Under the pieces are notes generated by a model, which ran no database searches, was not told the origin of the DNA, and saw nothing but the letters and a program-made list of their open reading frames with translations. From the NCBI GenBank assembly GCA_025359565.1, contig JANYFY010000025.1:62001-126000 (forward strand): a stretch of DNA of 64,000 bases. The letters run 5' to 3'. The position numbers and the translations under genes are program-made. Origin of the DNA: Gammaproteobacteria bacterium (GTDB taxonomy: Bacteria; Pseudomonadota; Gammaproteobacteria; Steroidobacterales; Steroidobacteraceae). Of the stretch, positions 17,720 to 48,747 are shown in pieces (the stretch's first letter is position 1; each line of letters starts with the position of its first letter).

Positions 17720-18632
17720 GTGGCGCACCGGGCGGGTTGGCCTGTGTAGGATGCGAGGGCCGGGTGAGTTGCAAACGCTCGCGCGCTGCGTTGGGGCTGA
17801 TCACCCGCGCTCCGAGGCGCTCGATAATCTCGACGGCGCGCGTGACTAATTCGGCGTTGGTGGCAAGATGGCCTTTGCCTAAGAGTAAATTGTCTTCGAG
17901 TCCGACACGCACATTGCCGCCGAGCAATACGGCTTGCGCGACCATGGGCATTTGCATGCGGCCAATACCGAAGCCGCTCCAGATCACGTTGGGCGGGAGG
18001 GTGTCGACCATGGATTGCATGGAGCGCGTGTCTGCGCCTGCGCCCCAGGGGACACCGAGACAGACTTGGTAGAGGGCGGGCGCGGTAACGAGCCCTTCTT
18101 TATAGAGTTGGTTGGCGAGGCGAACGTGGCCTAGGTCGAAGACTTCGAGTTCGGGCTTAACGCCGAGCTCTTGGATGCGTTTGGCCATGCTGCGTACGTG
18201 TGCGACGGAGTTCATAAATACTTGGTCGCCGAAATTCATGCTGCCGCAGTCGAGACTGCATATCGATGGACGGAGTGCTTCGATGTGTTCGAGTCGCTCT
18301 TGAAAGCCGACAAAATCGGTACCGGGACCGGGGACTAGTGGGTCGGGGTCGCCTAAGGTAAAATCGCCGCCCATTCCGGTGGTGAGATTTAAAATTACAT
18401 CGACGCCGCTGGCGGCGACGCGGGTCATGACTTCGCGGTAGTAGCCCACATTGCGGGTGCCTTGGCCGGTGGCGGGATCGCGGACGTGGACGTGTGCGAT
18501 GGCGGCTCCGGCACGCGCGGCGGCGATGCAGGCGTTGGCAATTTGTTCCGGAGTGACCGGGACATGTGGGCTTTTTTGAGCGGTGTCGCCGCCGCCGGTG
18601 ACGGCGCAGGTGATCATTACGTCTTGGTTCAT
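17712..18632 (-). CDS. Beta-keto acid cleavage enzyme (BKACE, DUF849)
   Basis: 306-residue Zn-dependent TIM-barrel enzyme of the BKACE family (type member Kce, 3-keto-5-aminohexanoate cleavage). It shows the start [12 protein letters not shown], the metal-binding [23 protein letters not shown], and the C-terminal [15 protein letters not shown] with the family's Arg/Glu pair. BKACE enzymes join a beta-keto acid with acetyl-CoA to give a CoA ester and acetoacetate. Translationally coupled to the downstream aminotransferase; a role in carnitine, beta-alanine or lysine breakdown is possible but not resolvable. Confidence 0.92.
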
Positions 18633-24692: not shown

Positions 24693-24776
24693 GCACCGCG
24701 CGGAGTGTGGCGAGCCGCAATTATGATCGCTTCGGCGAATTGTGAAAGCCGTAAGCAGGCAATACTCCTGGCCGCT

Positions 24777-26671: not shown

Positions 26672-27172
26672 ATGATTCTTCGTGCTGCCGATCCTGCCGA
26701 TTTCTCCGCTATCCTCGCGCTCAATGAGGAGTCGGAAAGTTTTTTAAGTCCGCTGTCTCGGTCGCAACTATTGGTGCTACACGAAAAGGCAGCACTCCAT
26801 CTCGTGGTTGAACAAGCCGGGCAAGTTAGGGCATTCTTGCTGGCTCTGCGCGAACACGTCGCATACGACAGTGTTAACTACCAATGGTTTGAAAATCGAT
26901 ATCCAGCATTTCTGTACATTGATCGAGTGGTAGTGAGTCGAACCCTACAAGCAAAAGGCACTGGCTCGTTGATGTATAAAGAAATCTTTGCACATGCAGA
27001 GCAGTACGAAGTGCCGCTCATCACCTGTGAATATGACATTGACCCACCCAACTTAAGCTCCGCGCGTTTTCATACCAAATTTGGGTTTCGCGAAGTAGGT
27101 CGTCAGTCTGCCGGCAACGGTAAGAAACAGGTATCCTTACAGGTAGCAGAGACAAAGGCGCTCGTACGATGA
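26672..27172 (+). CDS. GNAT-family N-acetyltransferase
   Basis: 166 residues. GNAT fold with the acetyl-CoA-binding A motif around FLYIDRVVVSRTLQAKGTGS and C-terminal FHTKFGFREVGRQ. Similar small acetyltransferases use amino acids or small amines as acceptors. It stands upstream of a second GNAT and of the DgcN/DgcA pair, so N-acetylation of an amino acid is a reasonable guess. Confidence 0.9.
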   Translation: MILRAADPADFSAILALNEESESFLSPLSRSQLLVLHEKAALHLVVEQAGQVRAFLLALREHVAYDSVNYQWFENRYPAFLYIDRVVVSRTLQAKGTGSLMYKEIFAHAEQYEVPLITCEYDIDPPNLSSARFHTKFGFREVGRQSAGNGKKQVSLQVAETKALVR

Positions 27173-27200
27173 CGAGGTTTGCGTTTAAAAACTTGAGCCC

Positions 27201-27668
27201 ATGACCCAAGCTACTTATCGCGGTGCAACTGGCGCTGATACTTCCGCCGTCGCGTTTCTCGTTGAACGCTATTGGGCTTTTGAGCATATCGAAGGCTTTG
27301 AGTCGCAACGTGTCGTTACTTTATTGACCGAAATCTTGGCTACGCCGGAGCACGGGGCGTTGTGGATCGCAGAGAAGGAAGGTCAGTTGATCGGTTACCT
27401 GCTTGCGGTCTATTTATGGAGTCTTGAGTATGGCGGCATGATGGCTCAAATCGATGAGTTTTTTGTGCTCCCTGAAATTCGCTCCGCCGGTGTCGGTACT
27501 GGGCTGTTGCAATACGCCGAGGCTGCAATGGCCAGCAGCGGTTTGGTACATCTTGAGTTGCAACTCGCGGTTACTAATATCAGAGGCCGTGTCTTTTATC
27601 GACACCACGGATTTCATGAACGCGCCGGTTACGAATTGCTCGACAAGGCCTTAAGTTTGCGAAATTAG
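27201..27668 (+). CDS. GNAT-family N-acetyltransferase
   Basis: 155 residues, complete GNAT domain: MAQIDEFFVLPEIRSAGVGT (acetyl-CoA loop, R-x-x-G-x-G/A type), then HLELQLAVTNIRGRVFYRHH and GFHERAGYELLDK. Not closely similar by eye to the preceding GNAT, so not a recent duplication. Follows it by 28 bp and precedes the dgcN-like gene by about the same, forming one directional run. Confidence 0.92.
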   Translation: MTQATYRGATGADTSAVAFLVERYWAFEHIEGFESQRVVTLLTEILATPEHGALWIAEKEGQLIGYLLAVYLWSLEYGGMMAQIDEFFVLPEIRSAGVGTGLLQYAEAAMASSGLVHLELQLAVTNIRGRVFYRHHGFHERAGYELLDKALSLRN

Positions 27669-27696
27669 GGGTGATCGCGCTATTGTGCCGGGCATT

Positions 27697-28719
27697 ATGA
27701 AACTTACAAAACCGTACTTACTTTTTCTGGGTGAAAGCCGTTCCTTAGGCGAGTGTAAAACCGCAGCGGGATTGCGCGATTGGTGCCGTAGTGATGTGGT
27801 AGGGCAGTATTCACTGCCCGCCGGCACAGTCGATCTCGGCATTACGCGCCATACACCGGAATCCGCGTACGCGGCGGGGGCACGTTCAATGGTCATCGGC
27901 ATTGCGCCCGTGGGAGGAGCGATTCCGCCTGCATGGTGGCCAGCATTGTTGAGTGCCGTTGAAGCAGGTCTCGACATCGTTAGCGGCATGCACACGCGCT
28001 TAAAATCGGTGCCGGGGCTCGCCGCGGCCGCTGAACGACGCGGACGTAATCTCTTCGATGTGCGTCACTCTGATCAGGTGTTCTCGGCGGCTAGCGGTTT
28101 GAAGCGCACGGGTATGCGAGTTTTAACCGTGGGCACAGATTGCGCGTTGGGCAAGAAATACACCGCCCTGGCGTTGACCAAGGCATTACAAGGAGCGGGT
28201 CGAGCCGCGACCTTCCGAGCCACGGGTCAGACTGGAATTATGATTTCCGGCAGCGGTGTTGCGATCGATGCGGTGGTGGCGGACTTTATCGCGGGCGCAG
28301 CTGAATGGCTGTCGCCGAATAATAAACCCGATCACTGGGATGTGATTGAAGGCCAGGGTGCACTATTTCACCCGGCTTATGCCGGTGTGACCTTAGGTTT
28401 AGTGCATGGTTCGCAACCGGATGCATTAGTGCTATGCCACGATCCCTTGCGTACGACGATTGATGAGTATCCCCACTGCCCGTTGCCTACCTTACGGGAG
28501 GCGATGGATCAATATATAACGGCTGCTCGTGTCACTAATCGCGCGGTGCGTTTTGTCGGTGTTAGCCTCAATACTTCGAAGCTTAACGATGAACATCGAA
28601 AACGCTTAACGGTGGAACTGGAAAAAGAGTTCAAGCTGCCGGTGATCGATCCCATTCGCGAGGGAGCTGCGCGTGTCGCCGCGCGGATGGTGGAAGATTT
28701 CCCGGGAGCCAACTCATGA
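27697..28719 (+). CDS. dgcN: DUF1611 protein, DgcN-like D-glutamate N-acetyltransferase
   Basis: About 340 residues. Two-domain DUF1611 protein: N-terminal KPYLLFLGESRSLGECKTA and SVPGLAAAAERRGRNLFDVR, then a C-terminal P-loop domain with VGTDCALGKKYTALAL and IEGQGALFHPAYAGVTLGLV. DUF1611 proteins next to a dipeptide-epimerase-like enzyme are the DgcN/DgcA pair reported to N-acetylate D-glutamate and then racemise N-acetyl-D-Glu. The ATG at 27697 precedes the conserved start; a GTG at 27685 is possible. The next gene overlaps by 4 bp. Identity is by family and context. Confidence 0.85.
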   Translation: MKLTKPYLLFLGESRSLGECKTAAGLRDWCRSDVVGQYSLPAGTVDLGITRHTPESAYAAGARSMVIGIAPVGGAIPPAWWPALLSAVEAGLDIVSGMHTRLKSVPGLAAAAERRGRNLFDVRHSDQVFSAASGLKRTGMRVLTVGTDCALGKKYTALALTKALQGAGRAATFRATGQTGIMISGSGVAIDAVVADFIAGAAEWLSPNNKPDHWDVIEGQGALFHPAYAGVTLGLVHGSQPDALVLCHDPLRTTIDEYPHCPLPTLREAMDQYITAARVTNRAVRFVGVSLNTSKLNDEHRKRLTVELEKEFKLPVIDPIREGAARVAARMVEDFPGANS

Positions 28720-29726
28720 GCTTACCCACAGCGATGAAGCTCAAGCTTGAGCGTGAGACCTGGCCCTACAAGGTGCCGTTCGGTATCTCGCGAGGTGCTG
28801 AAGTCGCGCTGAACGTGATTGTTGTGACGTTGACCGGTAGCGATGGCATCGTGGGTCGCGGCGAAGCGGCGGGAGTGGATTACGACGGCGAAACCGTTGC
28901 GTTGATGAGTCAGCAGATTGAAGCATTTCGCGCCGATGTCGAAGTCGGTATTGATTTTAATTCGCTTGCGACTCGTTTGCCGCCGGGGGGTGCACGCAAT
29001 GCACTCGACTGTGCGTTGTGGGATATGACCGCACGCCGTCGCGAGGTATCGGTATGGGAGATGGCGAATATCAGCGATCCTAAACCGCTGACCACGTGTT
29101 TCACCCTAGGGATTGATACCGATGAGGCCACACGCGCCGGTGCGACTCAGTATCGCGATTGGCCGCTGCTTAAAGTTAAAGTCAACCATGAGCGACATAT
29201 AGAAGTCATTCGCTTGGTACGAAAAGCTGCACCGAATGTAGGCATTATGATTGATCCGAATCAATCGTGGACGGTCGAGTTACTCAACAATCTTGCGCCC
29301 GAACTGCACGCGCTGGGCGTGGTATTAATCGAACAACCGGTGGCACGTGGTCAGGATGCTGTTTTAAGCAAATATACGGGAAAAATAAGGCTCGCGGCGG
29401 ATGAGTCTGTGATTGATCGACGTAGTTTGTCGGCCATTGGCGATTACTATCAAGTGGTGAATATCAAGCTCGATAAAACGGGGGGTCTGACCGAAGCGCT
29501 AGCATTGGCGCGCGAAGTGCGAAATTTAGGATTGGCAGTCATGGTGGGATGTATGGCGGGTACCTCGCTCGCCATGGCGCCTGGAATGGTGGTGGGGCAG
29601 TTGGCGGAGTTTATTGATTTGGATGGTCCGCTACTGCATGGCAAGGATCGAACCCCTGGCATTGAATATCATTTAGGGCGCATGCAATTGCCGCCCGCAG
29701 CGCTGTGGGGAGGCGCGGGGTCCTGA
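28716..29726 (+). CDS. dgcA: Enolase-superfamily racemase/epimerase, DgcA-like
   Basis: 336 residues, muconate-lactonising/dipeptide-epimerase subgroup. Catalytic features in order: LLKVKVN (KxK base), IMIDPNQSW (Asp ligand), VLIEQPVARGQ (Glu ligand), LAADESV (Asp ligand) and VNIKLDKTGGL (opposite base Lys). The KxK plus Lys pair means 1,1-proton transfer, i.e. racemisation/epimerisation. Coupled by overlap to the DUF1611 gene. Candidate substrates: N-acetyl-D-Glu, or L-Ala-D/L-Glu type dipeptides; sequence alone cannot decide. Confidence 0.9.
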   Translation: MSLPTAMKLKLERETWPYKVPFGISRGAEVALNVIVVTLTGSDGIVGRGEAAGVDYDGETVALMSQQIEAFRADVEVGIDFNSLATRLPPGGARNALDCALWDMTARRREVSVWEMANISDPKPLTTCFTLGIDTDEATRAGATQYRDWPLLKVKVNHERHIEVIRLVRKAAPNVGIMIDPNQSWTVELLNNLAPELHALGVVLIEQPVARGQDAVLSKYTGKIRLAADESVIDRRSLSAIGDYYQVVNIKLDKTGGLTEALALAREVRNLGLAVMVGCMAGTSLAMAPGMVVGQLAEFIDLDGPLLHGKDRTPGIEYHLGRMQLPPAALWGGAGS

Positions 29727-31765
29727 ACTCGATCACAGAACCGCAGGGAACTCTGGAAGTTGCACTGACGCACGCCACGCGCTTGTTGGCGCACAGTCCC
29801 GACCTAGCCGCGACCCAAGCGCAAGAAATTCTTGAAGTTGTACCAGGGCATCCGCAGGCTCGGCTTATTTTAGGCGCGGCGCGACGATCACTTGGTAATA
29901 CTCGAGCGGCATTGGAGGTGCTAGAACCTTTAAGCCAAGAGCAGCCGCAGTCGATGCCCGTTCATTTGGAGCTGGGCGTTGCGCGTAGCGAAGCGGGTTT
30001 GGGCATTGAAGCGGCGGCGGCGTTTTTGCGCGCGACGCAATTGAAGCCGGATTCGCCTGATGCGTGGCGACTCCTCGCGGATCAGTGGGATGCTAACGGA
30101 GATTCGCAACGAGCGGATGCGGCGCGTGCTCGCTATCTCAAAACGGCTACCAATGATCCGCAACTCCTACAGTGCGCCGTCGCCTTAGTTGAGAACAACT
30201 TGCCCGTGGCCGATGCATTGTTGCGCGCACATCTACAAAGAGCTCCGAATGATGTCGCAGCTTTGCGCATGTTGGCCGAAGTCGCTGCGCGTTTGCGCAG
30301 GTATGGAGATGCGCAGGAATTATTGGAGCGTTGTCTGAAGTTGTCCCCTAGTTTTGATGCGGCTCGTCACAATTATGCGGTGGTGCTTAATCGTCAGGGT
30401 AAGGCCGCGGCGGCGTTGCCGGAGGTGCAAAAATTATTGGCGAGGGAGCCGCGTAATCCGAATTACCGGAACCTTGGCGCGGCGGTACAAGCGAATCTCG
30501 GCAATTACGCGGAGTCGATTGTGGTGTATGAGGCGGTGTTAAAAGAGTATCCGAACCAACCGAATATTTGGATGAGCTATGGGCATTCCTTAAAGACCGC
30601 GCGGCGCCAGGAGGAGAGTATTGCCGCGTACCGACGGGCGATTAGCCTCAAGCCTAGCCTGGGCGAGGCTTACTGGAGCCTGGCGAATCTTAAAACCTTC
30701 CGTTTTACGGAGAAGGAGGTGGGGGCGATGGACGCTCTACTTAAGGGGGACGCTCTACTTAAGGGGGACTTCGATGAGGACGAGCGGGTGAATATTGAGT
30801 TCTCGCTCGGTAAGGCGTTTGAGGATCGGGCCCTTTATAAAGAGTCGTTCGAGCATTATCAGGCGGGCAATGACTTGCATCGTCGTCGGCATCCCTACCG
30901 CGCGGATGAAAATACGTCCTTCGTGCGGCGTTCGATGGAGGTGTTTACGCCGGAGTTCTTCGCTGCACGTATGGGGGTCGGGGATCCGTCGCCGGATCCC
31001 CTATTTATTGTGGGATTGCCGCGGGCGGGTTCGACGCTGATTGAGCAAATCTTGGCCAGCCACTCGTTGGTTGAAGGGACGATGGAGTTGCCGGATATTC
31101 CACAGATTGCGCGTGAGCTCGCGGACCGGGAGGCTAGGGACAATGAGGAGGCGGGTTTTTTGCGGTCTTTAGCTGCGTTGAGTGCCGTGGAGTTACGCGG
31201 ATTAGGCGAACGTTATCTGACGGGAACGCGGGTGCATCGGAAAACAAGTAAACCTTTTTTCATCGATAAAATGCCGAATAACTGTCTATACGTGGGGCTG
31301 ATTCAACTCATCTTACCGAATGCGAAAATAATCGATGCGCGGCGCCATCCGTTGGGATGCTGCTTTTCGGGATATAAGCAGCATTTTGCACGGGGCCAAA
31401 ATTTTACCTATGGACTTGAAGATATAGGGCGCTATTATCTGGACTATGTAGAGCTTATGGAACATGGGGAGCGGGTACTGCCAGGGCGGGTTCACCGCGT
31501 GTTGTACGAGGCAATGATCGAGGACACCGAGACTGAGGTGCGTCGACTCCTGGATTATTGTGGATTACCGTTCGAACCGGGGTGTTTGAAGTTCTATGAG
31601 AACCCGCGAGCCGTGCGTACCGCGAGCTCGGAGCAGGTCCGCCAACCGATATTCCGCGAAGGTATGGACTTTTGGCAGCATTACGAACCGTGGCTGGGAC
31701 CGCTTAAGGAGGCGCTCGGGTCGGCGCTTGACTGTTACCCTGCCACCACGAAAGTCGCGCAGTAG
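29705..31765 (+). CDS. TPR-repeat sulfotransferase family protein
   Basis: 686 residues. About ten TPR units fill residues 15-345 (e.g. PQSMPVHLELGVARSEAGLG, PSLGEAYWSLANLKTFRF). The C-terminal half is a PAPS sulfotransferase domain: 5'-phosphosulfate loop FIVGLPRAGSTLIEQIL, 3'-phosphate region AKIIDARRHPLGCCFSGYKQ, RVLYEAMIEDTETEVRRLLD. Starts at a GTG overlapping dgcA by 22 bp. Similar TPR-sulfotransferases stand beside TonB receptors in related bacteria; substrate unknown. An 18-bp tandem duplication adds LLKGDA at about residue 347. Confidence 0.9.
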   Translation: MGRRGVLNSITEPQGTLEVALTHATRLLAHSPDLAATQAQEILEVVPGHPQARLILGAARRSLGNTRAALEVLEPLSQEQPQSMPVHLELGVARSEAGLGIEAAAAFLRATQLKPDSPDAWRLLADQWDANGDSQRADAARARYLKTATNDPQLLQCAVALVENNLPVADALLRAHLQRAPNDVAALRMLAEVAARLRRYGDAQELLERCLKLSPSFDAARHNYAVVLNRQGKAAAALPEVQKLLAREPRNPNYRNLGAAVQANLGNYAESIVVYEAVLKEYPNQPNIWMSYGHSLKTARRQEESIAAYRRAISLKPSLGEAYWSLANLKTFRFTEKEVGAMDALLKGDALLKGDFDEDERVNIEFSLGKAFEDRALYKESFEHYQAGNDLHRRRHPYRADENTSFVRRSMEVFTPEFFAARMGVGDPSPDPLFIVGLPRAGSTLIEQILASHSLVEGTMELPDIPQIARELADREARDNEEAGFLRSLAALSAVELRGLGERYLTGTRVHRKTSKPFFIDKMPNNCLYVGLIQLILPNAKIIDARRHPLGCCFSGYKQHFARGQNFTYGLEDIGRYYLDYVELMEHGERVLPGRVHRVLYEAMIEDTETEVRRLLDYCGLPFEPGCLKFYENPRAVRTASSEQVRQPIFREGMDFWQHYEPWLGPLKEALGSALDCYPATTKVAQ
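30731..30766. repeat. 18-bp perfect tandem duplication
   Basis: gacgctctacttaagggg occurs twice back to back (30731-30748, 30749-30766). In frame, it adds six residues at the junction of the TPR and sulfotransferase halves. Perfect identity suggests a recent event. Confidence 0.93.
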
Positions 31766-31828
31766 CCAAAAAAGGCGTATCTTCCGACCCACAAGTTAAT
31801 TTTAGTTTGTTAAAGGATAGGGGAAATT

Positions 31829-34408
31829 ATGAGTCGTCGTGCAAATAACTTCGTGTCGCGGACAAATCGACCCATTGCTGCGTTCAGTGGGCGGGCGGCT
31901 CTGGGAATACCACTGGCAGCCGCGATTTCGGCGATTCTAGCGGGCGTGCCGCTGGCGTATGCCGCGGAGCCGGATTCCAATACATTAGAAGAAGTCGTAG
32001 TGACCGCGCAAAAGCGCAGTGAAAATCTTCAGGATGTGCCCATTGCGATCATCGCGCTAGGCACGCAAAAGCTTGAGGAACTGCATGTGCAGAACCTCGA
32101 TGATTACGTAAAGTACCTGCCGAGCGTCTCCTATAGTCGCGGTCAGGGTCAGGGCGGCAACGGTCAGCCGGGCTCATCGCATGTCTACATGCGCGGCGTG
32201 GTTTCAGGCGCTAACGAAAATCATTCGGGCTCGCAGCCCAGTGTCGGGACCTACCTTGACGAGCAACCGGTGACGACTATCGACGGTACGGTCGATGTGC
32301 ATGTGTATGACATTGCTCGTGTCGAAGTACTTGAAGGCCCGCAGGGCACTCTGTATGGAGCAAGCTCCCAAGCGGGCACCATTCGCATAATTACCAACAA
32401 ACCCGATATCTCCAAGTTCTCGGCGGGCTACGATATCGGCGCTAACCAAATCAATCACGGGGGTGTGGGCTATAGCGCGGAAGGATTCGTGAATATACCC
32501 TTAAGTCCCGTCGCGGCGATTCGCCTGGTCGGTTGGGTTGAGCATGATGGTGGGTATATTAGTAATGTCGCGGGGACGAATGCTGCCGCCGGTATTGTCA
32601 ACGGCCAGCGTACTTTTCCCACTTGGTCGGCGCTTACGGGTCTTACCCTGAGCAATGCAGCCTACCGCAAGAATAATTACAACACGGCTGAAACCAAAGG
32701 TGCGCGTGCCGCGCTTAAGCTTAACCTTGGTGACAACTGGACCATCACACCGACGGTCATGGGACAGTCAGTGAATAGTGAAGGTTTTTTCGGCTACGAT
32801 CCGGCGGTGGGTGATTTGAAGATCGCCCATTTTGGGCCTGAGAATTCTCAAGATAGTTGGATACAGACCGCGCTTACCGTCCAGGGTAAAGTGTCCGACC
32901 TAGACGTGGTCTATGCGGGTGCGTATATGAAGCGCAATATCCATTCGATTGCGGACTATAGCGATTATTCTTATTTTTACGACAAAGCGGCGGGTTCTGG
33001 CGCTTATTGGACCGGAAATGATGGTAAAGCGATCATGCCGCAGCAACTTGTCGTGTCTAAAGGTTACTTTGAGAAGTGGAGTCATGAGTTGCGGTTTTCG
33101 ACGCCGCAGCAGTACCCGGTCAAAGCAACTTTTGGGGCATTCATCCAACGTCAAGTTCACGATATCTTTGAGGACTATGTGATGCCCGGCTACGGATTCG
33201 TCAATCCTTATGGGGGTGGCAATCCGGCGGGTCTGGCTGACTCGTTATCAATTCCTTCAACGTCGGGAAATTCAATTTGGCTCACGGATGAGCAACGCAT
33301 TGATCGCGATCAAGCGCTGTTTGCGCAGTTAACCTGGGATATGACCGACAAACTATCCGGCAGTGTAGGGTATCGCTATTTCAAGAGCGACAATACATTG
33401 GTTGGCTTCTTTGGGTATTCGCTCAATTTCGATAAAGTAACTGGCGGATCTACCGGGATGCCGCAATGCCCGCTACCACCCTACGTTATTCGGGTCAATG
33501 GCACGCCCTGTACCAATCTTGATAAGCGAGTGTCGGAAAGTGGCAACGTGCCGCGCTACAATTTAAATTACAAAATTACTCCTGACGCGATGGTCTATGC
33601 GACTTATTCTAAAGGCTTCCGTCCGGGCGGCGTCAATCGTACATCGCGAGCTGACATAGGCCCCTATGCGGCGGATTTTTTGACCAACTATGAAGCAGGT
33701 TGGAAAACTCAGTGGTTCGATCATCACGTGCGATGGAATGGTTCATTATTTTTGGAAGATTGGAAAAATTTCCAATTTTCTTTTTTAGGGCCAAGTAGCG
33801 TGACGATCATTCAAAATGGCGGAAATGCGCGCATAAAAGGCATCGAATCGGAGCTCGAATGGGCAGTGGCTGGCGGATTGAACTTGTCGACCAGCTTTAC
33901 ACTGATCGATACGCGATTATTGCAGAACTATTGTGGCTTTACTGACCCTTCTGGGGGTCCAGTTACGAGTGCGAATTGCCTGTATGCGGGAGAGCCCCTC
34001 ACAGACTCAAAGGGTAAGTCCAAAGCTTTTCCCCCGCTGGCTTTCTCAGGTACCAATCTACCTATTGCTCCGAAGTTTAAGGGCAATGTTGTGTCGCGTT
34101 ATAACTTTGAGATGGGTGGTTGGAACGCTAATGTGCAAGGGTCATTTGTTTATCAAACACAGACGGCGCCTGCGCTAAAAACGCAAGACCAGCAGTTAAT
34201 TGGGACACAACCGGCTTATGGGTTGTTTGATTTATCTGGTGGAATCACCAAGGATAATATGACTATAGAATTATTCATTAATAATGTGGTAGACCGGCGG
34301 GCGCAGCTTTCGCGTTTTGAACAATGTACCGTTAAGGTGTGTACACAGCCGTACATCATTCCGACGCAACCGCGCACGATTGCCATTAAGTTCGGCCAGA
34401 AGTTTTAA
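31829..34408 (+). CDS. TonB-dependent outer-membrane receptor
   Basis: 859 residues. Signal peptide cleaved near VPLAYA-AE, TonB-box-like/plug start EEVVVTAQKRSENLQDVPIA, plug domain with YDIARVEVLEGPQGTLYGAS and TIRIITNKPD, then a 22-strand-type barrel including YSKGFRPGGVNR and ending aromatic at KFGQKF. An AAAGGATAGGGGAAATT ribosome site precedes the ATG. It is the uptake gate of the surrounding cluster, presumably for a peptide-like ligand. It is paralogous to the receptor at 46215. A terminator follows. Confidence 0.94.
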   Translation: MSRRANNFVSRTNRPIAAFSGRAALGIPLAAAISAILAGVPLAYAAEPDSNTLEEVVVTAQKRSENLQDVPIAIIALGTQKLEELHVQNLDDYVKYLPSVSYSRGQGQGGNGQPGSSHVYMRGVVSGANENHSGSQPSVGTYLDEQPVTTIDGTVDVHVYDIARVEVLEGPQGTLYGASSQAGTIRIITNKPDISKFSAGYDIGANQINHGGVGYSAEGFVNIPLSPVAAIRLVGWVEHDGGYISNVAGTNAAAGIVNGQRTFPTWSALTGLTLSNAAYRKNNYNTAETKGARAALKLNLGDNWTITPTVMGQSVNSEGFFGYDPAVGDLKIAHFGPENSQDSWIQTALTVQGKVSDLDVVYAGAYMKRNIHSIADYSDYSYFYDKAAGSGAYWTGNDGKAIMPQQLVVSKGYFEKWSHELRFSTPQQYPVKATFGAFIQRQVHDIFEDYVMPGYGFVNPYGGGNPAGLADSLSIPSTSGNSIWLTDEQRIDRDQALFAQLTWDMTDKLSGSVGYRYFKSDNTLVGFFGYSLNFDKVTGGSTGMPQCPLPPYVIRVNGTPCTNLDKRVSESGNVPRYNLNYKITPDAMVYATYSKGFRPGGVNRTSRADIGPYAADFLTNYEAGWKTQWFDHHVRWNGSLFLEDWKNFQFSFLGPSSVTIIQNGGNARIKGIESELEWAVAGGLNLSTSFTLIDTRLLQNYCGFTDPSGGPVTSANCLYAGEPLTDSKGKSKAFPPLAFSGTNLPIAPKFKGNVVSRYNFEMGGWNANVQGSFVYQTQTAPALKTQDQQLIGTQPAYGLFDLSGGITKDNMTIELFINNVVDRRAQLSRFEQCTVKVCTQPYIIPTQPRTIAIKFGQKF

Positions 34409-34734
34409 AATAATAGTGCTCTTGACTTAAGCGATTCGCTGGCGGGCCATTCACGGTCCGCCAGTTTCTTTTCGGGGTGATTCGCCTCTTATCTTATCCC
34501 TAGGACGGGTGCACAGCCGTGAGCGCCTCAGGCCGCAGTAAAAGTCCGAAGTTACTGGCGCGATCTGACCCTGCTAGTTCTCGTGTAGGGAAAGCTTGGC
34601 AAACGTAGGGCGTCCATGTACTGTTAGTTGCACCAAAGATATCTGCAGGTCTTGGCCAGTTTTTGGCAATCATGCGCGCGTCGGACACAAAGACCATTCG
34701 ATCAGAAAAATAGCTCTAACGGAAAATCTGGTAT
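34409..34734. other. Gene-free stretch after TonB receptor
   Basis: 326 bp. The left third holds a terminator hairpin (listed). A minus-strand open frame of 66 codons (34500-34697) has no recognisable family and I do not call it. The rest should contain a promoter for the metallohydrolase operon; no clear -35/-10 pair was found. Confidence 0.5.
34439..34472 (+). terminator. Rho-independent terminator
   Basis: Stem CTGGCGGGCC / GGTCCGCCAG (10 pairs with one G-U, 6-nt loop ATTCAC) followed by TTTCTTTT. Ends the TPR-sulfotransferase/TonB receptor transcript and separates it from the metallohydrolase–permease pair. Confidence 0.85.
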
Positions 34735-37320
34735 ATGCGCATAGGTTTGCTGTTGGGTGGTATGGTTAGTTGTCTGGGTGCCTTACCTGTCTGTGCGGCC
34801 CGCGTACCCGTCCTCAATCAAATCGATGCTCCGCACCCGTACTACTTTCGGGAAATGTATCTGCCGCAGCTCACCAGCGGTCCGTCTAGCGTCACTTGGT
34901 CGGCGGATTCTCAAGAAGTCATTTACTCGATGGCGGGATCGCTTTGGCGTCAGCGGTTGGGGACTCAAGTTGCGCAGCAACTGACTGCGGCGGCTGGGTA
35001 CGACTACCAGCCTGATTGGTCGCCGGATGGGCGCTGGGTGGTGTATAGCGTTTACAATGGGACGTCGGTGGAGTTGTGGGTGTTGGATTTGTCGAGTGGC
35101 AAGGCGCATGCGCTGACCCGTAATGGTGCGGTGAATGTGGAGCCGCGCTTCTCTCCGGACGGTAAACGACTGGTCTTTGTGTCAACGCTGTTTAATCGGC
35201 GGTTCCATGTATTCACCGCCGATTTCTCGGGTGCGTATGTCGCAAGCGAAGGTGCGCCCGTGCTGGCGAATAGTGCGCGTTTGACCGGCGAGAATAAGAG
35301 CGACTTGCCGCGCTATTACTACAGCCCGTTCGATCATGAAATAAATCCGGTCTGGTCGCGTGATGGCCGGGATGTTTTGTACGTGTCGAATCGCAATCAT
35401 ATCTACGGCACCGGAGGCTTTTGGCGCGTTTCCGCGGAAACGTCTGCTGATGCAGGCGCGGCCCCGCGCGAAGCGCATGAAATCCATTACGAGGAGACCA
35501 ACTGGAAGGCGCGCCCGGACCTATCGCCCGATGGCTCTCGCCTGGTTTATAGCTCCTATTTGGGGCAGTCGCTTAATAGTTTGTGGTTGATGCCTGCGAT
35601 GGGTGGGGATGCCTTTCCGCTTGGGTATTCGGGCCATGGCAGTGAAGGCGATCAGACCGCTCCGCGTTGGTCGCCCGATGGTAGGCAGATTGCGTTTATC
35701 AGTAATCGGGGCGGTAATACTGAGTTATGCATTGAGACCATTCCGGGGGGGCAGGCGAGTTGCTTGAATACCCTCGAGCGTCGCTACTTGCATCCTATGC
35801 AACACTTAGACATCAACCTCAAGAGTCTTGGAGGACGCGCTTCAGCGGCGCGAATCAGCATCACGGATAGCGCGGGTAAGTTTTACGCGCCTGCGAGTGC
35901 TTGGATCCATGCGGATGACGGAATTGACCGGCCCCATCAAAAATTTGAGGCGCACTATTTTCATGCCAGCGGTAGCGTGAATATCGAGGTGCCAGTAGGA
36001 CTCATTCACGTCGATATCCTGCATGGCTTCGGACGCAAATTGGAGCACCACGACATCCCGATGGTTGCGGATCGGATGACCACCCTCGTGGTGAACCTGG
36101 ACGAGGGGACTTGGGCCGTGCCCGAAACTGGCCAGTGGGTAAGTGCCGACGTTCATGTGCATATGAACTACGGAGGCGCGTACTTGAACACCCCAAAGCA
36201 TTTGGTACTGCAAGCGCAGGCCGAGAACTTAGGTCTCGTGGATTCGTTGATCGTCAACAAAGAACAGCGTTTCCCGGACATCGCCTATAACGGATTGCAT
36301 ACGGATCCTGCGTCTGCGCCTGATGCGTTGGTGGTACACGGGCAGGAGTATCACACGAGCTATTGGGGTCACTTGGGGTTGCTGGACATCAATAGCCTGA
36401 TATTGCCGGGCTATGTGGGCTATCCCAATACTGCAGCGGCGACTCTCTATCCGATGAACGCGGACATTGCTGATATCGCTCATGCTCGCGGAGCCTTGGT
36501 GGGCTATGTGCACCCGTTTGATGAGGAACCACGGCCGGTTAGTAAGGCTGATGAGAAACTGACGAATGAATTGCCGATCGATGTGGCGTTAGGCAAAGTC
36601 GATTACCTGGAGATTCTGGGCTTTAGCGATCATCGTGCCACGGCAGCGGTGTGGTATCGATTGCTTAATTTGGGATTTCATCTGCCCGCCGCCGCGGGGA
36701 CCGATGCGATGGCAAACTTTGCCTCGCTGCGCGGACCGGTGGGGATGAATCGCGTGTATGCGCGGGTGGATGCGGGCCCTATTAATTCGCAAGCATGGAT
36801 GGCGGCGCTTAAAGCGGGGAGGACTTTTGCGACTAATGGTCCTTTGTTGGGCTTTAATTTGGGGGTTGCGTACATCGGCGATGAGTTGAAGTTTGATACG
36901 CCTCAAGCCAGCGTGCCTTTCTCGGTGCGGATGCACTCGATTGTGCCGGTGGATCATTTGGAATTGGTGTGCAATGGCCGGGTGGTAAAATCGTTGGTGC
37001 AACACAAGGCGTTGGATCAGGGCGAGTTCACCGGACACATTCCTTTACACACGAGTGGTTGGTGTGTGGTGCGAGCGTCTACCGATGCGGCTCATTATCC
37101 GGTGTTGGATAACTATGTGTATGCCACCACTAGCCCGATCTATATTCAGATTGCAGGTCAGCCATTGAAGTCGCCCGAGGATGCGCGCTATTTCGCGGCG
37201 TGGGTTGATCGAGTCGTGGAAGCGACGACTGCGTATCCTGATTGGATTAACGCTGCGGAAAAGCAGGTTGTCTTGACGACGCTTGCGAAGGCGAAAGAAG
37301 TTTATTTGAGGATGGAATGA
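34735..37320 (+). CDS. TolB-type propeller fused to CehA/McbA-like PHP metallohydrolase
   Basis: 861 residues. Signal peptide (PVCAA-RV), then WD40/TolB-like propeller blades at about 35-340, each with SPDGxxxxx motifs (WSPDGRWVVYSV, FSPDGKRLVFVS, WSPDGRQIAFIS). The C-terminal catalytic half (about 460-790) has the PHP-type metal motifs DVHVHMN, VVHGQEYH, GYVHPFDE and AAGTDAMAN, as in CehA/McbA phosphoesterase/carboxylesterase-like enzymes. Probably periplasmic. Translationally coupled to the amino-acid permease by a 4-bp overlap, which points to a peptide or amino-acid conjugate substrate. Confidence 0.88.
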   Translation: MRIGLLLGGMVSCLGALPVCAARVPVLNQIDAPHPYYFREMYLPQLTSGPSSVTWSADSQEVIYSMAGSLWRQRLGTQVAQQLTAAAGYDYQPDWSPDGRWVVYSVYNGTSVELWVLDLSSGKAHALTRNGAVNVEPRFSPDGKRLVFVSTLFNRRFHVFTADFSGAYVASEGAPVLANSARLTGENKSDLPRYYYSPFDHEINPVWSRDGRDVLYVSNRNHIYGTGGFWRVSAETSADAGAAPREAHEIHYEETNWKARPDLSPDGSRLVYSSYLGQSLNSLWLMPAMGGDAFPLGYSGHGSEGDQTAPRWSPDGRQIAFISNRGGNTELCIETIPGGQASCLNTLERRYLHPMQHLDINLKSLGGRASAARISITDSAGKFYAPASAWIHADDGIDRPHQKFEAHYFHASGSVNIEVPVGLIHVDILHGFGRKLEHHDIPMVADRMTTLVVNLDEGTWAVPETGQWVSADVHVHMNYGGAYLNTPKHLVLQAQAENLGLVDSLIVNKEQRFPDIAYNGLHTDPASAPDALVVHGQEYHTSYWGHLGLLDINSLILPGYVGYPNTAAATLYPMNADIADIAHARGALVGYVHPFDEEPRPVSKADEKLTNELPIDVALGKVDYLEILGFSDHRATAAVWYRLLNLGFHLPAAAGTDAMANFASLRGPVGMNRVYARVDAGPINSQAWMAALKAGRTFATNGPLLGFNLGVAYIGDELKFDTPQASVPFSVRMHSIVPVDHLELVCNGRVVKSLVQHKALDQGEFTGHIPLHTSGWCVVRASTDAAHYPVLDNYVYATTSPIYIQIAGQPLKSPEDARYFAAWVDRVVEATTAYPDWINAAEKQVVLTTLAKAKEVYLRME

Positions 37321-38693
37321 CTGAAACTCCAAAAGGATCTTTGCGCAAAATCTTAGGATTGGGTTTTGGTTTGGCGTTGGCCTTTGGCGGTACGGTGGGC
37401 GTGGGAATTTTGCGTTTGCCAGGGACCTTAGCCGCGGCGTTGGGCGATTCGCGCTTAATCATTGCCTGCTGGATTATTGGGGGGTTGTACGCACTTCTCG
37501 GTGCAGTGGCGGTGGCGGAGTTGTCCGCGATGTGTCCGCAGTCGGGCGGATTTTATGTCTATGCCCGGCGTGCCTTTGGCAATGGCGCGGGTTTTGTGGT
37601 GGGTTGGAGCGATTGGATTAATAACGTCGCTTCCCTTTCGTATGCGGCCATTACTGCGGCGGTATTTTTGGGAGTCCTCTGGGCGCCCGCTGCTGCGCAC
37701 CCGCAAACGGTTTCGATCACTGTACTGGCTGTTTTTACGGCTCTGCATTGGTTGGGGTTACGTATTGGGAGTACCTCGACTCGGATCATCAGCGTGACCG
37801 TGGGGGTGATGTTCATGGTGCTGGTCGTGGGCTGTTTTCTAGTCCCTGCAGCACCGGCATTGGCGCCTGCGTTGGCACCGGCAGCGGGGAATGCTGCGAG
37901 CGCAAGCGTGGTCGTATCGGCGGCGTCATTGCCACTGTTGTCGTTAGGCATGCTTACGGCCCTAGTCACCGCCCTGCGTGCGGTGCTGGTGACTTACGAT
38001 GGTTGGTATTCGCCGATCTACTTGGCCGAAGAAAACAAAGATCCAGCGACTACTATGCCGCGCGCAATTGTGGGCGGTACCTTGTTGGTGGCGGCTCTGT
38101 ATATCGTGCTCAACTTGGCCTTCTTAAGAGTTCTTCCGCTGTCAGTGCTGGCTCATTCCGAGTTACCGGCGGCGGATGCGGCGCGCATAATTTTGCCGCG
38201 GGGTGGGGCTGAGCTGGTAACGGTCATTTCACTGTTGACGGTTTTGAGCCTTGTTAATGCGGTGATGCTAATGACGCCGCGAATTTTGTTAGCTATTGGC
38301 CGCGATGGATTTTTTACCCAGAAAGCAGCGACGGTGAGCGCTGGCGGTACGCCGCGAGTGGCGTTGGTGATCTCTAGCCTAGCGGCTACGTTGCTGATTT
38401 TGTGCGGGACTTTCAACCAAATCATCGCGCTGGCGGCGGTGTTGTTTTTGTTGAACTATGTGTCGGCGTATTCGGCGATGTTTGTGTTGCGACGCCGTGA
38501 ACCCTTGACCGTGCGCCCGTATCGGGCGTTCGGTTTTCCGTATACGACGGGAATTGTGTTGCTGGGGTCGGTGCTGTTTTTGGTGGCTGCGGTGGTGGAT
38601 GATTATCAATCAGGCATGGCCGCGGCGGCATTGCTGGGGGGCTGCGTTCCCATTTACCTTTGGCTGGCGCGGAGCCGGGCGCACCAAACGTGA
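37317..38693 (+). CDS. APC-family amino acid permease
   Basis: 458 residues, about 12 transmembrane helices. The first helix contains FGGTVGVGILRLPG, the substrate-binding G-x-G-I-L turn of APC transporters. ALRAVLVTYDGWYSPIYLAEE corresponds to TM6 and its following loop. An Ala/Pro-rich loop with repeated ALAPALAPA lies near residue 180. It likely moves an amino acid released in the periplasm into the cytoplasm. Start overlaps the metallohydrolase stop by 4 bp. Confidence 0.93.
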   Translation: MTETPKGSLRKILGLGFGLALAFGGTVGVGILRLPGTLAAALGDSRLIIACWIIGGLYALLGAVAVAELSAMCPQSGGFYVYARRAFGNGAGFVVGWSDWINNVASLSYAAITAAVFLGVLWAPAAAHPQTVSITVLAVFTALHWLGLRIGSTSTRIISVTVGVMFMVLVVGCFLVPAAPALAPALAPAAGNAASASVVVSAASLPLLSLGMLTALVTALRAVLVTYDGWYSPIYLAEENKDPATTMPRAIVGGTLLVAALYIVLNLAFLRVLPLSVLAHSELPAADAARIILPRGGAELVTVISLLTVLSLVNAVMLMTPRILLAIGRDGFFTQKAATVSAGGTPRVALVISSLAATLLILCGTFNQIIALAAVLFLLNYVSAYSAMFVLRRREPLTVRPYRAFGFPYTTGIVLLGSVLFLVAAVVDDYQSGMAAAALLGGCVPIYLWLARSRAHQT

Positions 38694-38736
38694 CCATTTC
38701 ACTATCCAATCCGTTGACCGCTCTCCCCTCGTCGGT

Positions 38737-38886
38737 CAGATTGGGTGGTGCGGCTATCGCCTGCATGTGCTCGTGGATCTGAGCGGTATCATTTTTGGCT
38801 TGTTGAAGGTTCCAGTAAGTCTCGGTGTATTTCCAAATCTGTTTAAGATCGGATTTGGCGCGAGATCTGGAGGTGTTTTTTGCCAT
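38737..38886 (-). pseudogene. ParE/RelE-like toxin fragment
   Basis: From an ATG at 38886 the minus strand reads MAKNTSRSRAKSDLKQIWKY, then TETYWNLQQAKNDTAQIHEH and MQAIAAPPNL. This matches the N-terminal half of ParE toxins (helical hairpin with DLxxIWxYTxxxW and QA). The conserved C-terminal strands (R-x-I-R-Y-...HVIFY) are missing; the frame runs on into unrelated sequence antisense to the permease. No antitoxin gene is adjacent. It occupies most of the 334-bp gap before the deacylase. Confidence 0.6.
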
Positions 38887-39027
38887 AGCATTTAAAATGT
38901 ACCAAACTTTGGTAATAGGAACAATTGCACATCGTTGTGTGGAATGATGGGAAGGTTGTTTTCTCATATACTGTTGGTTGGAGCGGGCGCACGCGCATCA
39001 GCATCATTCGTCGGGAGATGAAATTAA

Positions 39028-40809
39028 ATGAATCCGTATTACCTGTTGGAATCATGCACTAAGTCTTTCGCGGCGAGGTGCGTGAAAGAGTTCGCTGTTG
39101 GGATGATGGGCGTTGCAGTTTTTGCGGCAACTAGCGCGCTAGGCGCCCCCACGCCCACGCCCACGCGCTCCCTGGCGAGCGGCCCGTCAGTACCGTTTGA
39201 TCTGATTATTACCAACGGACACGTCATCGATGGGTCAGGTTCGCCTTGGTATGCGGCCGATATTGGTATTCGCGCGGGGCATATCGACGCGATTGGGCGA
39301 CTTGAAGGAGCGCTGGCGAAACGGCGCATTGATGCGGCGGGAAAAATAGTGGCGCCCGGATTTATCGATATGTTGGGTCAGTCGGAATTCAGTATTTTAG
39401 TGGACCCGCGCGTGCCCTCGAAAATTTACCAGGGCATCACCACTGAAATCACGGGCGAAGGTAGTTCCGCCGCGCCGTTGTTGGGTCATGCTCGTGATGA
39501 AGCGCAGCAAGATCTGGAACATTATGGTCTCAAAGGAGATTGGACTACGTTGGGGGAATATTTTGCGCGCTTGGAGCACCAGGGCATCGGCATTAATTTA
39601 GCTTCCTACGTAGGTGCCACCACCATTCGCGAGGTGGTCATCGGGGGGGCGAATCGTGCTCCTTCGGCGGCCGAGTTGGTACACATGCAGACCCTCGTTC
39701 GTGAAGCCATGCAAGACGGAGCGATGGGCGTGTCAACGTCTTTAGAGTATGCACCAGCGCCCTATGCAAGCACCGAGGAGCTTATCGCGCTGGCGTCAGA
39801 GGCTTCTCGTTTCGGGGGTCTGTATGCTACCCATATGCGCTCAGAGGGCGATGCGATTGACGCATCCTTGGAGGAGACTTTTCGAATTGCGCGCGAGGCT
39901 CATATTCCGGTTGAGATTTGGCATTTGAAGGTGGCCGGCAAAAACAATTGGGGCCATATGCCGGCGGTGATTAAGCGCATTGATGCCGCGCGAGCGAGCG
40001 GGCTGGATATTGCCGCGGATACTTACGCGTACACGGCCTGGTTTAATACCATGTCGGCGTTTGTGCCGCCGTGGGTTCACGATGGCGGAACAGCGAAAAT
40101 GATTGAGCGGCTGAAAGATCCTAAAACCCGTGCTCGCATTCATCACGAGATGGAGACACCCAGCACGACATGGGATAACGAATGGTCAGAGATTCCGGGG
40201 CCGGAGGCGATTCTCATCGGCGTAGTCAAAAACCCCAAACTGTTGCCCTTGCAAGGCCAAACCTTGGCGGCCATTGCGACTGCACGCCATAACGACCCTA
40301 TTGATACCTTGCTCGATATTCTGATTGAAGACACGGGATTTACGGGCTGTGCGGTGTTTGGTATGCGCGAGGATGATGTGACCTTAGCATTGACTCAACC
40401 TTGGGTCTCAGTGAACAACGATAGTTCCGGCACTTCCCCTGAAGGACGCTTAGGTCAAGAGCATCCTCATCCGCGTGCTTACGGAACGTTTCCGCGTATA
40501 TTAAAAAAATATGTTCGTGAGGAACGTCGCTTTTCACTAGAAGAAGCGATTCGAAAGTTCACCGCACTCCCGGCCGCGCGGATGCGAATAGCCGATCGCG
40601 GTTTGGTCAAACAAGGCATGTGGGCCGACCTTGTAATCTTTGATGCCGAAACGATTGCCGATCGCTCGACCTTCAGTGAACCTAACCAGTTGGCTAGTGG
40701 CATGAATTGGGTGCTCGTCAACGGAGAGCCTGTGATCGCGGATGGGAAAATGACGGGCGCTCGGTCGGGGCGGGTGATAAGAGGGCCTGGGTATCGAGTG
40801 AGTCGTTGA
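39028..40809 (+). CDS. N-acyl-D-amino-acid deacylase-like amidohydrolase
   Basis: 593 residues, exported (hydrophobic segment to about residue 40, repeated PTPTPT linker). Amidohydrolase fold of the D-aminoacylase group: LIITNGHVIDGSGSPWYAAD, KIVAPGFIDMLGQSEFS, GAMGVSTSLEYAP, GGLYATHMRSEGD, EIWHLKVAGK (Lys/His site), and HPHPRAYGTFPRILKKYVRE. The usual HxH after PGFID is replaced by MLGQSE and the bridging Cys position by TGEGSS, so metal binding differs from classical enzymes. It fits the proposed D-amino-acid theme of the cluster. Confidence 0.88.
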   Translation: MNPYYLLESCTKSFAARCVKEFAVGMMGVAVFAATSALGAPTPTPTRSLASGPSVPFDLIITNGHVIDGSGSPWYAADIGIRAGHIDAIGRLEGALAKRRIDAAGKIVAPGFIDMLGQSEFSILVDPRVPSKIYQGITTEITGEGSSAAPLLGHARDEAQQDLEHYGLKGDWTTLGEYFARLEHQGIGINLASYVGATTIREVVIGGANRAPSAAELVHMQTLVREAMQDGAMGVSTSLEYAPAPYASTEELIALASEASRFGGLYATHMRSEGDAIDASLEETFRIAREAHIPVEIWHLKVAGKNNWGHMPAVIKRIDAARASGLDIAADTYAYTAWFNTMSAFVPPWVHDGGTAKMIERLKDPKTRARIHHEMETPSTTWDNEWSEIPGPEAILIGVVKNPKLLPLQGQTLAAIATARHNDPIDTLLDILIEDTGFTGCAVFGMREDDVTLALTQPWVSVNNDSSGTSPEGRLGQEHPHPRAYGTFPRILKKYVREERRFSLEEAIRKFTALPAARMRIADRGLVKQGMWADLVIFDAETIADRSTFSEPNQLASGMNWVLVNGEPVIADGKMTGARSGRVIRGPGYRVSR

Positions 40810-48695: not shown

Positions 48696-48747
48696 ACTGG
48701 CGGACCCATATTTACTGGCGGACCCATACCTACCGGCGGACCCTACC
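48696..48747. repeat. 17-18-bp imperfect tandem repeat, 3 copies
   Basis: Units of the type actggcggacccatac begin at about 48696, 48714 and 48732, between the TonB receptor stop and the stop of the convergent TIGR02466 gene. Confidence 0.85.

What the first reader, a model, noticed from the sequence alone, without database searches (positions are those of the whole stretch)
26672..40809. Candidate D-glutamate / N-acyl-D-amino-acid utilisation island
Thirteen kb of co-directional genes combine a DgcN-like DUF1611 protein, a DgcA-like racemase with all catalytic Lys/acid residues, two GNATs, a TonB receptor, a secreted propeller-PHP metallohydrolase coupled to an APC permease, and a D-aminoacylase-type enzyme. 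Established: DgcN/DgcA N-acetylate and racemise D-Glu. Inferred: the receptor and hydrolases liberate D-amino-acid conjugates, the permease imports them, DgcN/DgcA convert them to the L series. The TPR-sulfotransferase between racemase and receptor has no role in known versions, so this could be a new system.
Basis: partly seen in the sequence, partly recalled or inferred. Interest (0 to 1): 0.7.

Follow-up and report, generated by a model that had tools for sequence, protein, structure and literature searches.

The report
D-glutamate scavenging locus with sulfotransferase-linked receptor
An uncultured bacterium carries a set of genes that probably takes up and breaks down molecules containing the mirror-image amino acid D-glutamate; the odd sulfotransferase in it is probably not specific to that job but belongs with one class of outer-membrane receptor in these bacteria, a link for which no description was found.

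Summary
In detail: nine co-directional genes at 26672-40809 (two GNATs, DgcN-like, DgcA-like, TPR-sulfotransferase, TonB receptor, propeller-CehA, APC permease, D-aminoacylase-like). DgcN and DgcA match their NCBIfam models over full length but miss the curated cut-offs narrowly (448.7/480, 388.6/400). The order dgcA > D-aminoacylase-like > TPR-sulfotransferase > receptor > CehA recurs in one other genome of the genus and, cut by contig ends, in parts in four more; dgcN adjoins dgcA in some genomes and not in others; GNATs and permease are not kept. So the D-Glu reading is partly supported, but not as one fixed system. The sulfotransferase is not a D-Glu gene: 35 of 37 scored TPR-sulfotransferase loci lie within 4.5 kb of a TonB receptor, against 1 of 20 random windows; 44 of 47 paired receptors fall in one clade. 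Those receptors keep a DYxxYxxxY motif in an otherwise variable loop, a possible sulfation site. The amidohydrolase lacks the HxH and Cys of the classic D-aminoacylase. Elsewhere DgcN sits with S12 hydrolases and MlrC-family M81 peptidases, pointing to D-Glu peptides.

The parts
26672..27172 (+). GNAT-family acetyltransferase 1, not conserved at related loci
   Evidence: PF00583 1.2e-07; its cluster has a member in one other locus only, L113; no label
27201..27668 (+). GNAT-family acetyltransferase 2, no counterpart seen at related loci
   Evidence: PF00583 2.1e-14; no locus label or 42
27685..28719 (+). DgcN-like D-glutamate N-acetyltransferase (DUF1611)
   Evidence: NF041892 448.7 bits, cut-off 480, profile 1-325 of 326; 7xrj 1.6e-101; the only PF07755 match in the genome
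28716..29726 (+). DgcA-like N-acetyl-D-glutamate racemase (enolase superfamily), overlapping dgcN by 4 bases
   Evidence: NF042940 388.6 bits, cut-off 400, against 238.2 for L-Ala-D/L-Glu epimerase NF011708, cut-off 343; catalytic stretches align with 1jpd
29705..31765 (+). TPR-sulfotransferase of the receptor-linked subfamily
   Evidence: PF13469 2.1e-45 plus TPRs; a TonB receptor within 4.5 kb at 35 of 37 scored homologous loci, direct neighbour in 33
31829..34408 (+). TonB-dependent receptor of the sulfotransferase-paired clade; DYSDYSYFYD at residues 376-385
   Evidence: PF00593/PF07715; tree; column conservation
34438..34465 (+). terminator-like hairpin after the receptor (weak)
   Evidence: 11 pairs, 8 G-C
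34735..37320 (+). propeller plus CehA/McbA-type metallohydrolase, secreted by eye
   Evidence: NF038032 210.7 bits, cut-off 80; PD40 1.1e-31; 67% homologue behind the receptor in L200
37317..38693 (+). APC-family permease
   Evidence: PF13520 1.7e-41; APC near dgcN in 3 of 94 loci
39028..40809 (+). D-aminoacylase-like amidohydrolase without HxH and Cys metal ligands
   Evidence: 1rjp 7.9e-89 with HTH to LGQ and the Cys replaced or gapped; same pattern in 6 of 6 close homologues
16376..17728 (-). class III aminotransferase, possible displaced partner
   Evidence: PF00202 8.1e-85; homologues near dgcN-dgcA in L041, L059, L060, L061
17712..18632 (-). beta-keto acid cleavage enzyme (BKACE), possible displaced partner
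   Evidence: PF05853 2.4e-100; homologues near dgcN in L041, L059, L060, L061, L135

Best explanation
It is a composite catabolic locus for small peptides or conjugates that contain D-glutamate (or another acidic D-amino acid). Proposed path: (1) the TonB receptor, with its dedicated TPR-sulfotransferase, takes the substrate across the outer membrane; (2) the CehA-type hydrolase and the D-aminoacylase-like amidohydrolase, both probably periplasmic, open amide or ester bonds; (3) the APC permease or another carrier brings the freed amino acid in; (4) DgcN acetylates D-Glu with acetyl-CoA and DgcA turns N-acetyl-D-Glu into N-acetyl-L-Glu. Shown here by computation: gene content, recurring linkage of dgcA, amidohydrolase, sulfotransferase and receptor (and CehA once) in the genus, and the general receptor-sulfotransferase pairing. 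Inferred: every substrate, every direction of flow, and that the enzymes are active.
For: DgcN/DgcA best models and margins. Order dgcA > amidohydrolase > TPR-sulfotransferase > receptor > CehA in G021 (L200), and contig-limited parts of it in G007 (L199), G017 (L201), G013 (L141), G014 (L204); dgcN > dgcA > amidohydrolase in G001 (L033). Of 10 amidohydrolase matches at 63% identity or more outside the own genome, 6 sit beside dgcA or the sulfotransferase; the other four are in G016, G003, G002 (contig end) and an 80-residue contig-end piece in G013. dgcA is near dgcN in 67 of 94 loci, immediately beside in 62. D-aminoacylase-type genes near dgcN in 12 of 94 loci, S12 hydrolases in 32, TonB receptors in 26; random windows: 0, 1, 1 of 20 (S12 p 0.007, D-aminoacylase p 0.12). 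M81/MlrC-family genes in 8 DgcN loci (three confirmed by Pfam), in four of them with an Opp/Dpp-type importer (L063, L067, L086, L087). D-Glu to N-acetyl-L-Glu by the two enzymes is stated in PMC11747546 (passages).
Against: Both core enzymes miss the curated cut-offs. In G007, G013, G014, G017 and G021 the dgcN closest to the window's is not linked to the dgcA cluster; G021 has a second, 53% dgcN with a dgcA two genes on (L045), as do G020's loci L043 and L047. A threonine-aldolase-like gene precedes dgcA in the four cluster loci that reach that far (L199, L200, L201, L204); that fits a substrate other than plain D-Glu. 14 of 23 genus genomes, the own one included, lack a DgcN match. The amidohydrolase has lost classic metal ligands, so its activity is open. 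The D-aminoacylase and M81 counts are not significant against 20 windows (p 0.12 and 0.35), and the S12 and D-aminoacylase models were built from genes in these same loci. CehA next to the receptor outside the window rests on one locus, L200. The APC permease is not kept.
Confidence: 0.55

Rival explanations
1. Two neighbouring modules without common function: a DgcN/DgcA pair for D-Glu turnover, and a receptor-sulfotransferase-CehA-amidohydrolase module for an unrelated substrate.
For: The receptor-sulfotransferase pair occurs without D-Glu genes in view at the loci (dgcN and dgcA scored in none of 38), with varied neighbours: 81 Pfam families among 70 neighbours. dgcN is separate in five genus genomes. 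A 326-base gap and a weak hairpin divide the units.
Against: dgcA itself, not only dgcN, lies next to the amidohydrolase in five genus genomes and in the same run as the sulfotransferase in three (L199, L200, L201); in L059 and L061 a different arrangement again brings dgcN-dgcA and sulfotransferase-receptor together.
Confidence: 0.25
2. The racemase is an L-Ala-D/L-Glu epimerase and the locus recycles murein peptides.
For: Same superfamily, same catalytic residues; 1jpd, L-Ala-D/L-Glu epimerase, is a close solved relative (3.5e-60).
Against: The DgcA model beats the epimerase model by 150 bits and the epimerase score is far under its cut-off (238.2 of 343); dgcA directly beside dgcN in 62 of 94 loci.
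Confidence: 0.1
3. The locus serves cyanobacterial or other non-ribosomal peptides with D-Glu, as a stand-in for or extension of mlr-type pathways.
For: In Roseateles toxinivorans (L122) a receptor, an MFS-cluster gene, an S12 hydrolase, an M81/MlrC-family peptidase, dgcA and dgcN are consecutive and co-directional; Sphingosinicella microcystinivorans is also among the 80 kept loci. MlrC cleaves the Adda-Glu bond (PMC8618024, passages) and P. toxinivorans 2C20 degrades microcystins without the mlr cluster (PMC8068134, passages).
Against: The window's genome shows no M81 match (whose controls were silent, so weak); the window locus has CehA and an amidohydrolase instead; the nearest named loci (L059-L061) bear depths in cm in their names, which suggests soil (inferred).
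Confidence: 0.1

Closest known systems
DgcN/DgcA D-glutamate pathway (EC 2.3.1.312 and 5.1.1.25)
   Same: Both enzymes, adjacent and overlapping, full-length HMM matches
   Different: Scores just under both curated cut-offs; joined to a TonB receptor, TPR-sulfotransferase, CehA, APC and an amidohydrolase
D-aminoacylase / N-acyl-D-glutamate deacylase (1rjp, 3gip; NF006560)
   Same: Sequence family, two conserved His and the late Asp stretch
   Different: HxH replaced by LGQ and the metal-binding Cys by Glu or a gap; 204.6 bits against a cut-off of 340 for NF006560
RaxST with the PAPS genes raxP/raxQ of Xanthomonas (PMC4216712, passages)
   Same: A PAPS-type sulfotransferase; in two relatives PF01507 and CysNC-type genes follow the receptor-sulfotransferase pair
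   Different: Here the partner is a TonB receptor, not a secreted peptide and type I exporter, and the enzyme carries a long TPR superhelix
O-GlcNAc transferase / SPINDLY
   Same: N-terminal TPR superhelix in front of a C-terminal transferase (Foldseek hits)
   Different: Transferase domain unrelated; TM-scores low (TMq 0.22-0.29) and the sulfotransferase part is modelled poorly
mlr microcystin pathway (MlrB, recalled as S12; MlrC, M81)
   Same: S12 and M81 families recur near dgcN in other genomes
   Different: Neither lies in this island

Membership tests
DgcN (NF041892) | score over the curated equivalog cut-off of 480 bits | tested here: not met
   448.7; three related loci 444.5, 447.9, 453
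DgcN (NF041892) | full-length DUF1611 N and C domains, paired with dgcA | tested here: met
   PF17396 and PF07755; profile 1-325 of 326; dgcA overlaps by 4 bases
DgcN (NF041892) | acetyl transfer to D-Glu | not testable with these tools
   needs an assay
DgcA (NF042940) | score over the curated cut-off of 400 bits | tested here: not met
   388.6; four related loci 376.9-395.4
DgcA (NF042940) | enolase-superfamily catalytic Lys and acid residues | tested here: met
   alignment to 1jpd and 4gfi; residue roles recalled
L-Ala-D/L-Glu epimerase (NF011708) | score over 343 bits | tested here: not met
   238.2
D-aminoacylase | metal ligands HxH, Cys, His, His, Asp | tested here: not met
   HxH and Cys absent, two His and the Asp stretch present; ligand roles recalled
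CehA/McbA metallohydrolase (NF038032) | score over 80 bits | tested here: met
   210.7
Sulfotransfer_3 (PF13469) | score over 27 bits and the PRxGSTL-type donor motif | tested here: met
   156.1 bits; LPRAGSTLIEQ in the translation; motif role recalled
mlr microcystin pathway | M81/MlrC gene in the genome | tested here: inconclusive
   0 matches of PF07364, but no control genome rang

The most novel reading that the evidence does not exclude
The TPR-sulfotransferase sulfates its partner TonB receptor. A clade of receptors found in several classes of one phylum travels with a dedicated enzyme whose TPR superhelix, as in O-GlcNAc transferase, would hold the unfolded receptor before export and put sulfate on the acid-flanked tyrosines of the conserved DYxxYxxxY loop, tuning the outer face of the receptor for its ligand. 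I know of no protein-sulfation system for bacterial nutrient receptors (recall, and the narrow searches); in the window it would serve D-Glu conjugates.
Probability: 0.22. Interest if true: 0.85.

Novelty: new variant of a known kind. Interest (0 to 1): 0.5.

Why it matters
It ties the DgcN/DgcA pathway to outer-membrane uptake and hydrolysis in bacteria outside the sea, which hints at where environmental D-Glu comes from. More broadly it exposes a tight link between one clade of TonB receptors and a TPR-sulfotransferase; three narrow searches of the open-access library turned up no paper that describes it. If the enzyme modifies the receptor, a large and little-known receptor group would become testable.

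Tried and rejected
Foreign island by composition: rejected, GC is flat. GNATs as part of the pathway: rejected for lack of recurrence. TPR-sulfotransferase as a D-Glu gene: rejected (near dgcN in 3 of 94 loci, and in 2 of 20 random windows). DY motif as independent proof of sulfation: not obtained; 37 of 47 paired and 7 of 56 unpaired receptors have it, but it follows the clade and the independent-pairs test is uninformative (median p 1). Structure of the TPR-sulfotransferase (mean pLDDT 72.9): TPR part good, sulfotransferase part poor, and the 50 hits shown by the fold search look like TPR and other helical-repeat proteins. Promoter scan: no more hits than shuffles (8 against 11.4). My first ORF picker chose shadow ORFs in GC-rich loci and was replaced by a codon-scored caller; the neighbourhood counts come from the second. 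It gave no genes for L239 and L240 and only two for L241, so these were dropped's count (37 of 40).

Limits of the counts: the 40 TPR-sulfotransferase loci were picked by hand from the list, leaning to distant matches and including two of the own genome; the 20 random windows (positions drawn) lie on contigs whose lengths I knew because they had carried hits; one of them (L267) holds a TPR-sulfotransferase. One search compares five genes on either side of dgcN with whole 10.9 kb windows, counts the first DgcN per locus, leaves out five duplicate loci (L072, L084, L089, L090, L091) and loci without a full DgcN call (94 of 100 remain), and uses S12 and D-aminoacylase models built from these loci. 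Several M81 genes lie six or more genes from dgcN. Receptors under 550 residues were dropped; L290 repeats a window gene and was dropped, where L298 and L300 were labelled paired by hand. One search uses the 43 paired receptors over 700 residues. Of 90 neighbour proteins listed, 70 were given to (L251 was among those left out and was checked).
Full report
What is there. The window lies in a 3.14 Mb genome of 33 contigs, 98% complete. Nine + strand open frames fill 26672-40809: two GNATs, a DUF1611 protein, an enolase-superfamily racemase, a TPR-sulfotransferase, a TonB receptor, a propeller-CehA hydrolase, an APC permease and a D-aminoacylase-like amidohydrolase.

Core enzymes. The DUF1611 protein matches NCBIfam DgcN with 448.7 bits (cut-off 480) and the racemase matches DgcA with 388.6 (cut-off 400), against 238.2 for L-Ala-D/L-Glu epimerase (cut-off 343). 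The related loci scanned score alike (DgcN 444.5, 447.9 and 453 in three; DgcA 376.9-395.4 in four), so this looks like a slightly divergent branch. The nearest solved DgcN relative is 7xrj (1.6e-101), the nearest DgcA relatives 4gfi and 1jpd. PMC11747546 states that EC 2.3.1.312 and 5.1.1.25 turn D-Glu into N-acetyl-L-Glu (passages); PMC12363236 calls dgcN the key gene of an irreversible racemisation pathway for acidic D-amino acids and their amides (passages); PMC10845958 takes DgcN-DgcA as very likely the main D-Glu route in Shewanella psychrophila WP2 (passages). The founding paper of the pathway is not held and is known to me from recall only.

Is the gene order kept? Of 60 genomes searched, own included, 20 have a DgcN match, among them 8 of the 22 other genomes of the genus. 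In G021 (L200) the order is threonine-aldolase-like, dgcA, amidohydrolase, TPR-sulfotransferase, receptor, CehA; G007 (L199), G017 (L201), G013 (L141) and G014 (L204) show the parts that their contigs allow; identities to the window are 63-66% (dgcA), 74-79% (amidohydrolase), 64-67% (sulfotransferase), 67-69% (receptor), 67% (CehA). G001 (L033) has dgcN, dgcA, amidohydrolase; G016 (L032) has the aldolase-like gene, dgcN, dgcA and a gene with a weak match to caprolactamase alpha. In G007, G013, G014, G017 and G021 the best dgcN lies elsewhere with no dgcA in view (L034-L038); G021 and G020 also have more distant dgcN copies with a dgcA two genes on (L043, L045, L047). The aldolase-like gene (PF01212 for L199; 70-80% identical in L032, L200, L201, L204) has a 70% homologue in the window's own genome just upstream of another receptor (receptor plug at C13:24512). 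In G003 (L206) the sulfotransferase and receptor, and in G016 (L032) the dgcN cluster, sit at the same chromosomal place, shown by five shared flanking genes of 70-96% identity. So the cluster is a real but shuffled association within the genus.

Wider DgcN contexts. Across 94 DgcN loci (80 and 25, less five duplicates and six without a full DgcN call), dgcA lies within five genes in 67 (immediately beside in 62), S12 hydrolases in 32, TonB receptors in 26, D-aminoacylase-type genes in 12, BKACE in 5, class III aminotransferases in 4, APC in 3, the TPR-sulfotransferase in 3; in 20 random windows the only hits are S12 in 1, a receptor in 1 and TPR-sulfotransferase in 2. M81/MlrC-family genes occur in 8 DgcN loci (three checked by Pfam), some six or more genes away; in Roseateles toxinivorans (L122) one lies directly upstream of dgcA-dgcN, behind an S12 hydrolase, and in L063, L067, L086 and L087 they lie next to genes grouped with an Opp/Dpp-type importer, of which representatives were identified by Pfam. 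Against the small random set the M81 and D-aminoacylase counts are not significant (p 0.35 and 0.12), the S12 count is (p 0.007), with the caveat that its model came from these loci. The pattern suggests that DgcN/DgcA finish the breakdown of D-Glu peptides, with different hydrolases in different lineages.

The amidohydrolase. It aligns with D-aminoacylase 1rjp over two long stretches, but HTH is replaced by LGQ and the metal Cys by Glu or a gap; the two later His and the Asp stretch stay. Six of six close homologues share this. Of the more distant ones, those in L039 and L049 also lack HxH, while those in L054, L077, L093, L094, L103, L115 and L129 keep an HxH. Its activity must therefore be tested, not assumed.

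The TPR-sulfotransferase. The genome has 7 PF13469 genes and 32 receptor plugs; five of the seven are direct neighbours of a receptor, one has one gene between, one lies about 4 kb off. Of 40 homologous loci taken, 37 could be scored and 35 have a TonB receptor within 4.5 kb, a direct neighbour in 33 and on the same strand in 31; the two without are L229, at a contig end, and L257. 1 of 20 random windows has a receptor (Fisher p 6e-12). Among the fetched best matches of 29 related genomes, 26 show a receptor within 1.5 kb; in a draw of 90 genomes over the phylum the six fetched full-length matches over 430 bits all do (five outside the own genome, two of them in one genome), the 23 weaker ones once and weakly. 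So the link belongs to one subfamily. In a FastTree tree of 103 receptors, 44 of 47 paired ones fall in one supported clade of 52. In two genomes of one genus (L242, L251) the pair is followed at about 21 and 29 bases by a PF01507 gene and a CysNC-type gene with APS kinase; a third locus, L238, has homologues of both on the other strand nearby. This fits local PAPS supply. Among 43 paired receptors D376, Y377, Y380 and Y384 (window numbering) are 91, 95, 98 and 88% conserved; only 6 of 628 columns beyond residue 230 are more conserved than Y380, inside a loop that mostly varies. That the loop faces outward is inferred from its length. A four-sequence model shows a TPR superhelix, and the fold search puts O-GlcNAc transferase and SPINDLY first, at low TM-scores; the nearest solved sulfotransferase by sequence is CurM (4gbm, 4.3e-08), which acts on a small-molecule chain (recalled), so a small-molecule substrate is not excluded. 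Hence the novel reading that the enzyme sulfates its receptor; the motif cannot be separated from ancestry with these data.

Literature. Three searches that demanded sulfotransferase and TonB-dependent together with TPR, operon or neighbourhood terms returned one unrelated paper (listing), one on a gut bacterium's aryl sulfotransferases with a TonB gene near one of 17 (passages), and none. RaxST is a known bacterial tyrosine sulfotransferase with PAPS genes raxP and raxQ (PMC4216712, passages). One search for D-aminoacylase, DgcN, TonB and related terms listed two papers, neither about such a cluster by title and abstract. All are open-access papers only.

Verdict. The island is most likely a composite locus for D-Glu-containing conjugates, assembled from a DgcN/DgcA pair, hydrolases and a generic receptor-sulfotransferase pair. 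The last is the part most worth following.

Noticed in passing
window 24222-24890 and 25718-26230: Piece of a Fic-family gene (PF02661) followed by a second frame that looks like the tail of such a protein (by eye); the gene appears broken.
   Followed up: no
window 46215-48692 and 48747-49400: A second TonB receptor that falls in the sulfotransferase-paired clade but has no sulfotransferase beside it, facing a putative 2OG-Fe(II) oxygenase (PF13759).
   Followed up: partly
window 16376-18632: Class III aminotransferase and BKACE, whose homologues lie near dgcN-dgcA in L041, L059, L060 and L061 (BKACE also in L135); could be a route for a beta-amino acid from the same substrate.
   Followed up: partly
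L122:958-11011: Roseateles toxinivorans: receptor, MFS-cluster gene, S12 hydrolase, M81/MlrC-family peptidase fused to an alpha/beta hydrolase, dgcA, dgcN in a row; a candidate for mlr-independent peptide degradation in that species.
   Followed up: partly
L242:1956-9185, L251:1736-7897 and L238:8136-9334: Sulfate-activation genes (PF01507 and APS-kinase types) beside receptor-sulfotransferase pairs: a tight same-strand run in the first two, on the other strand in the third.
   Followed up: partly
loci L218-L256, neighbours of receptor-sulfotransferase pairs: Aspartyl/asparaginyl beta-hydroxylases in 4 of 70 neighbour proteins scanned, a second possible receptor-modifying enzyme.
   Followed up: no
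L199:3840-4890 and L200:16337-17345: A small two-gene pair upstream of the dgcA clusters that looks like an Xre-RES toxin-antitoxin module (by eye, no family search).
   Followed up: no
L131: Stenotrophobium rhamnosiphilum carries two dgcN-dgcA pairs with M81/MlrC-family genes around them.
   Followed up: no
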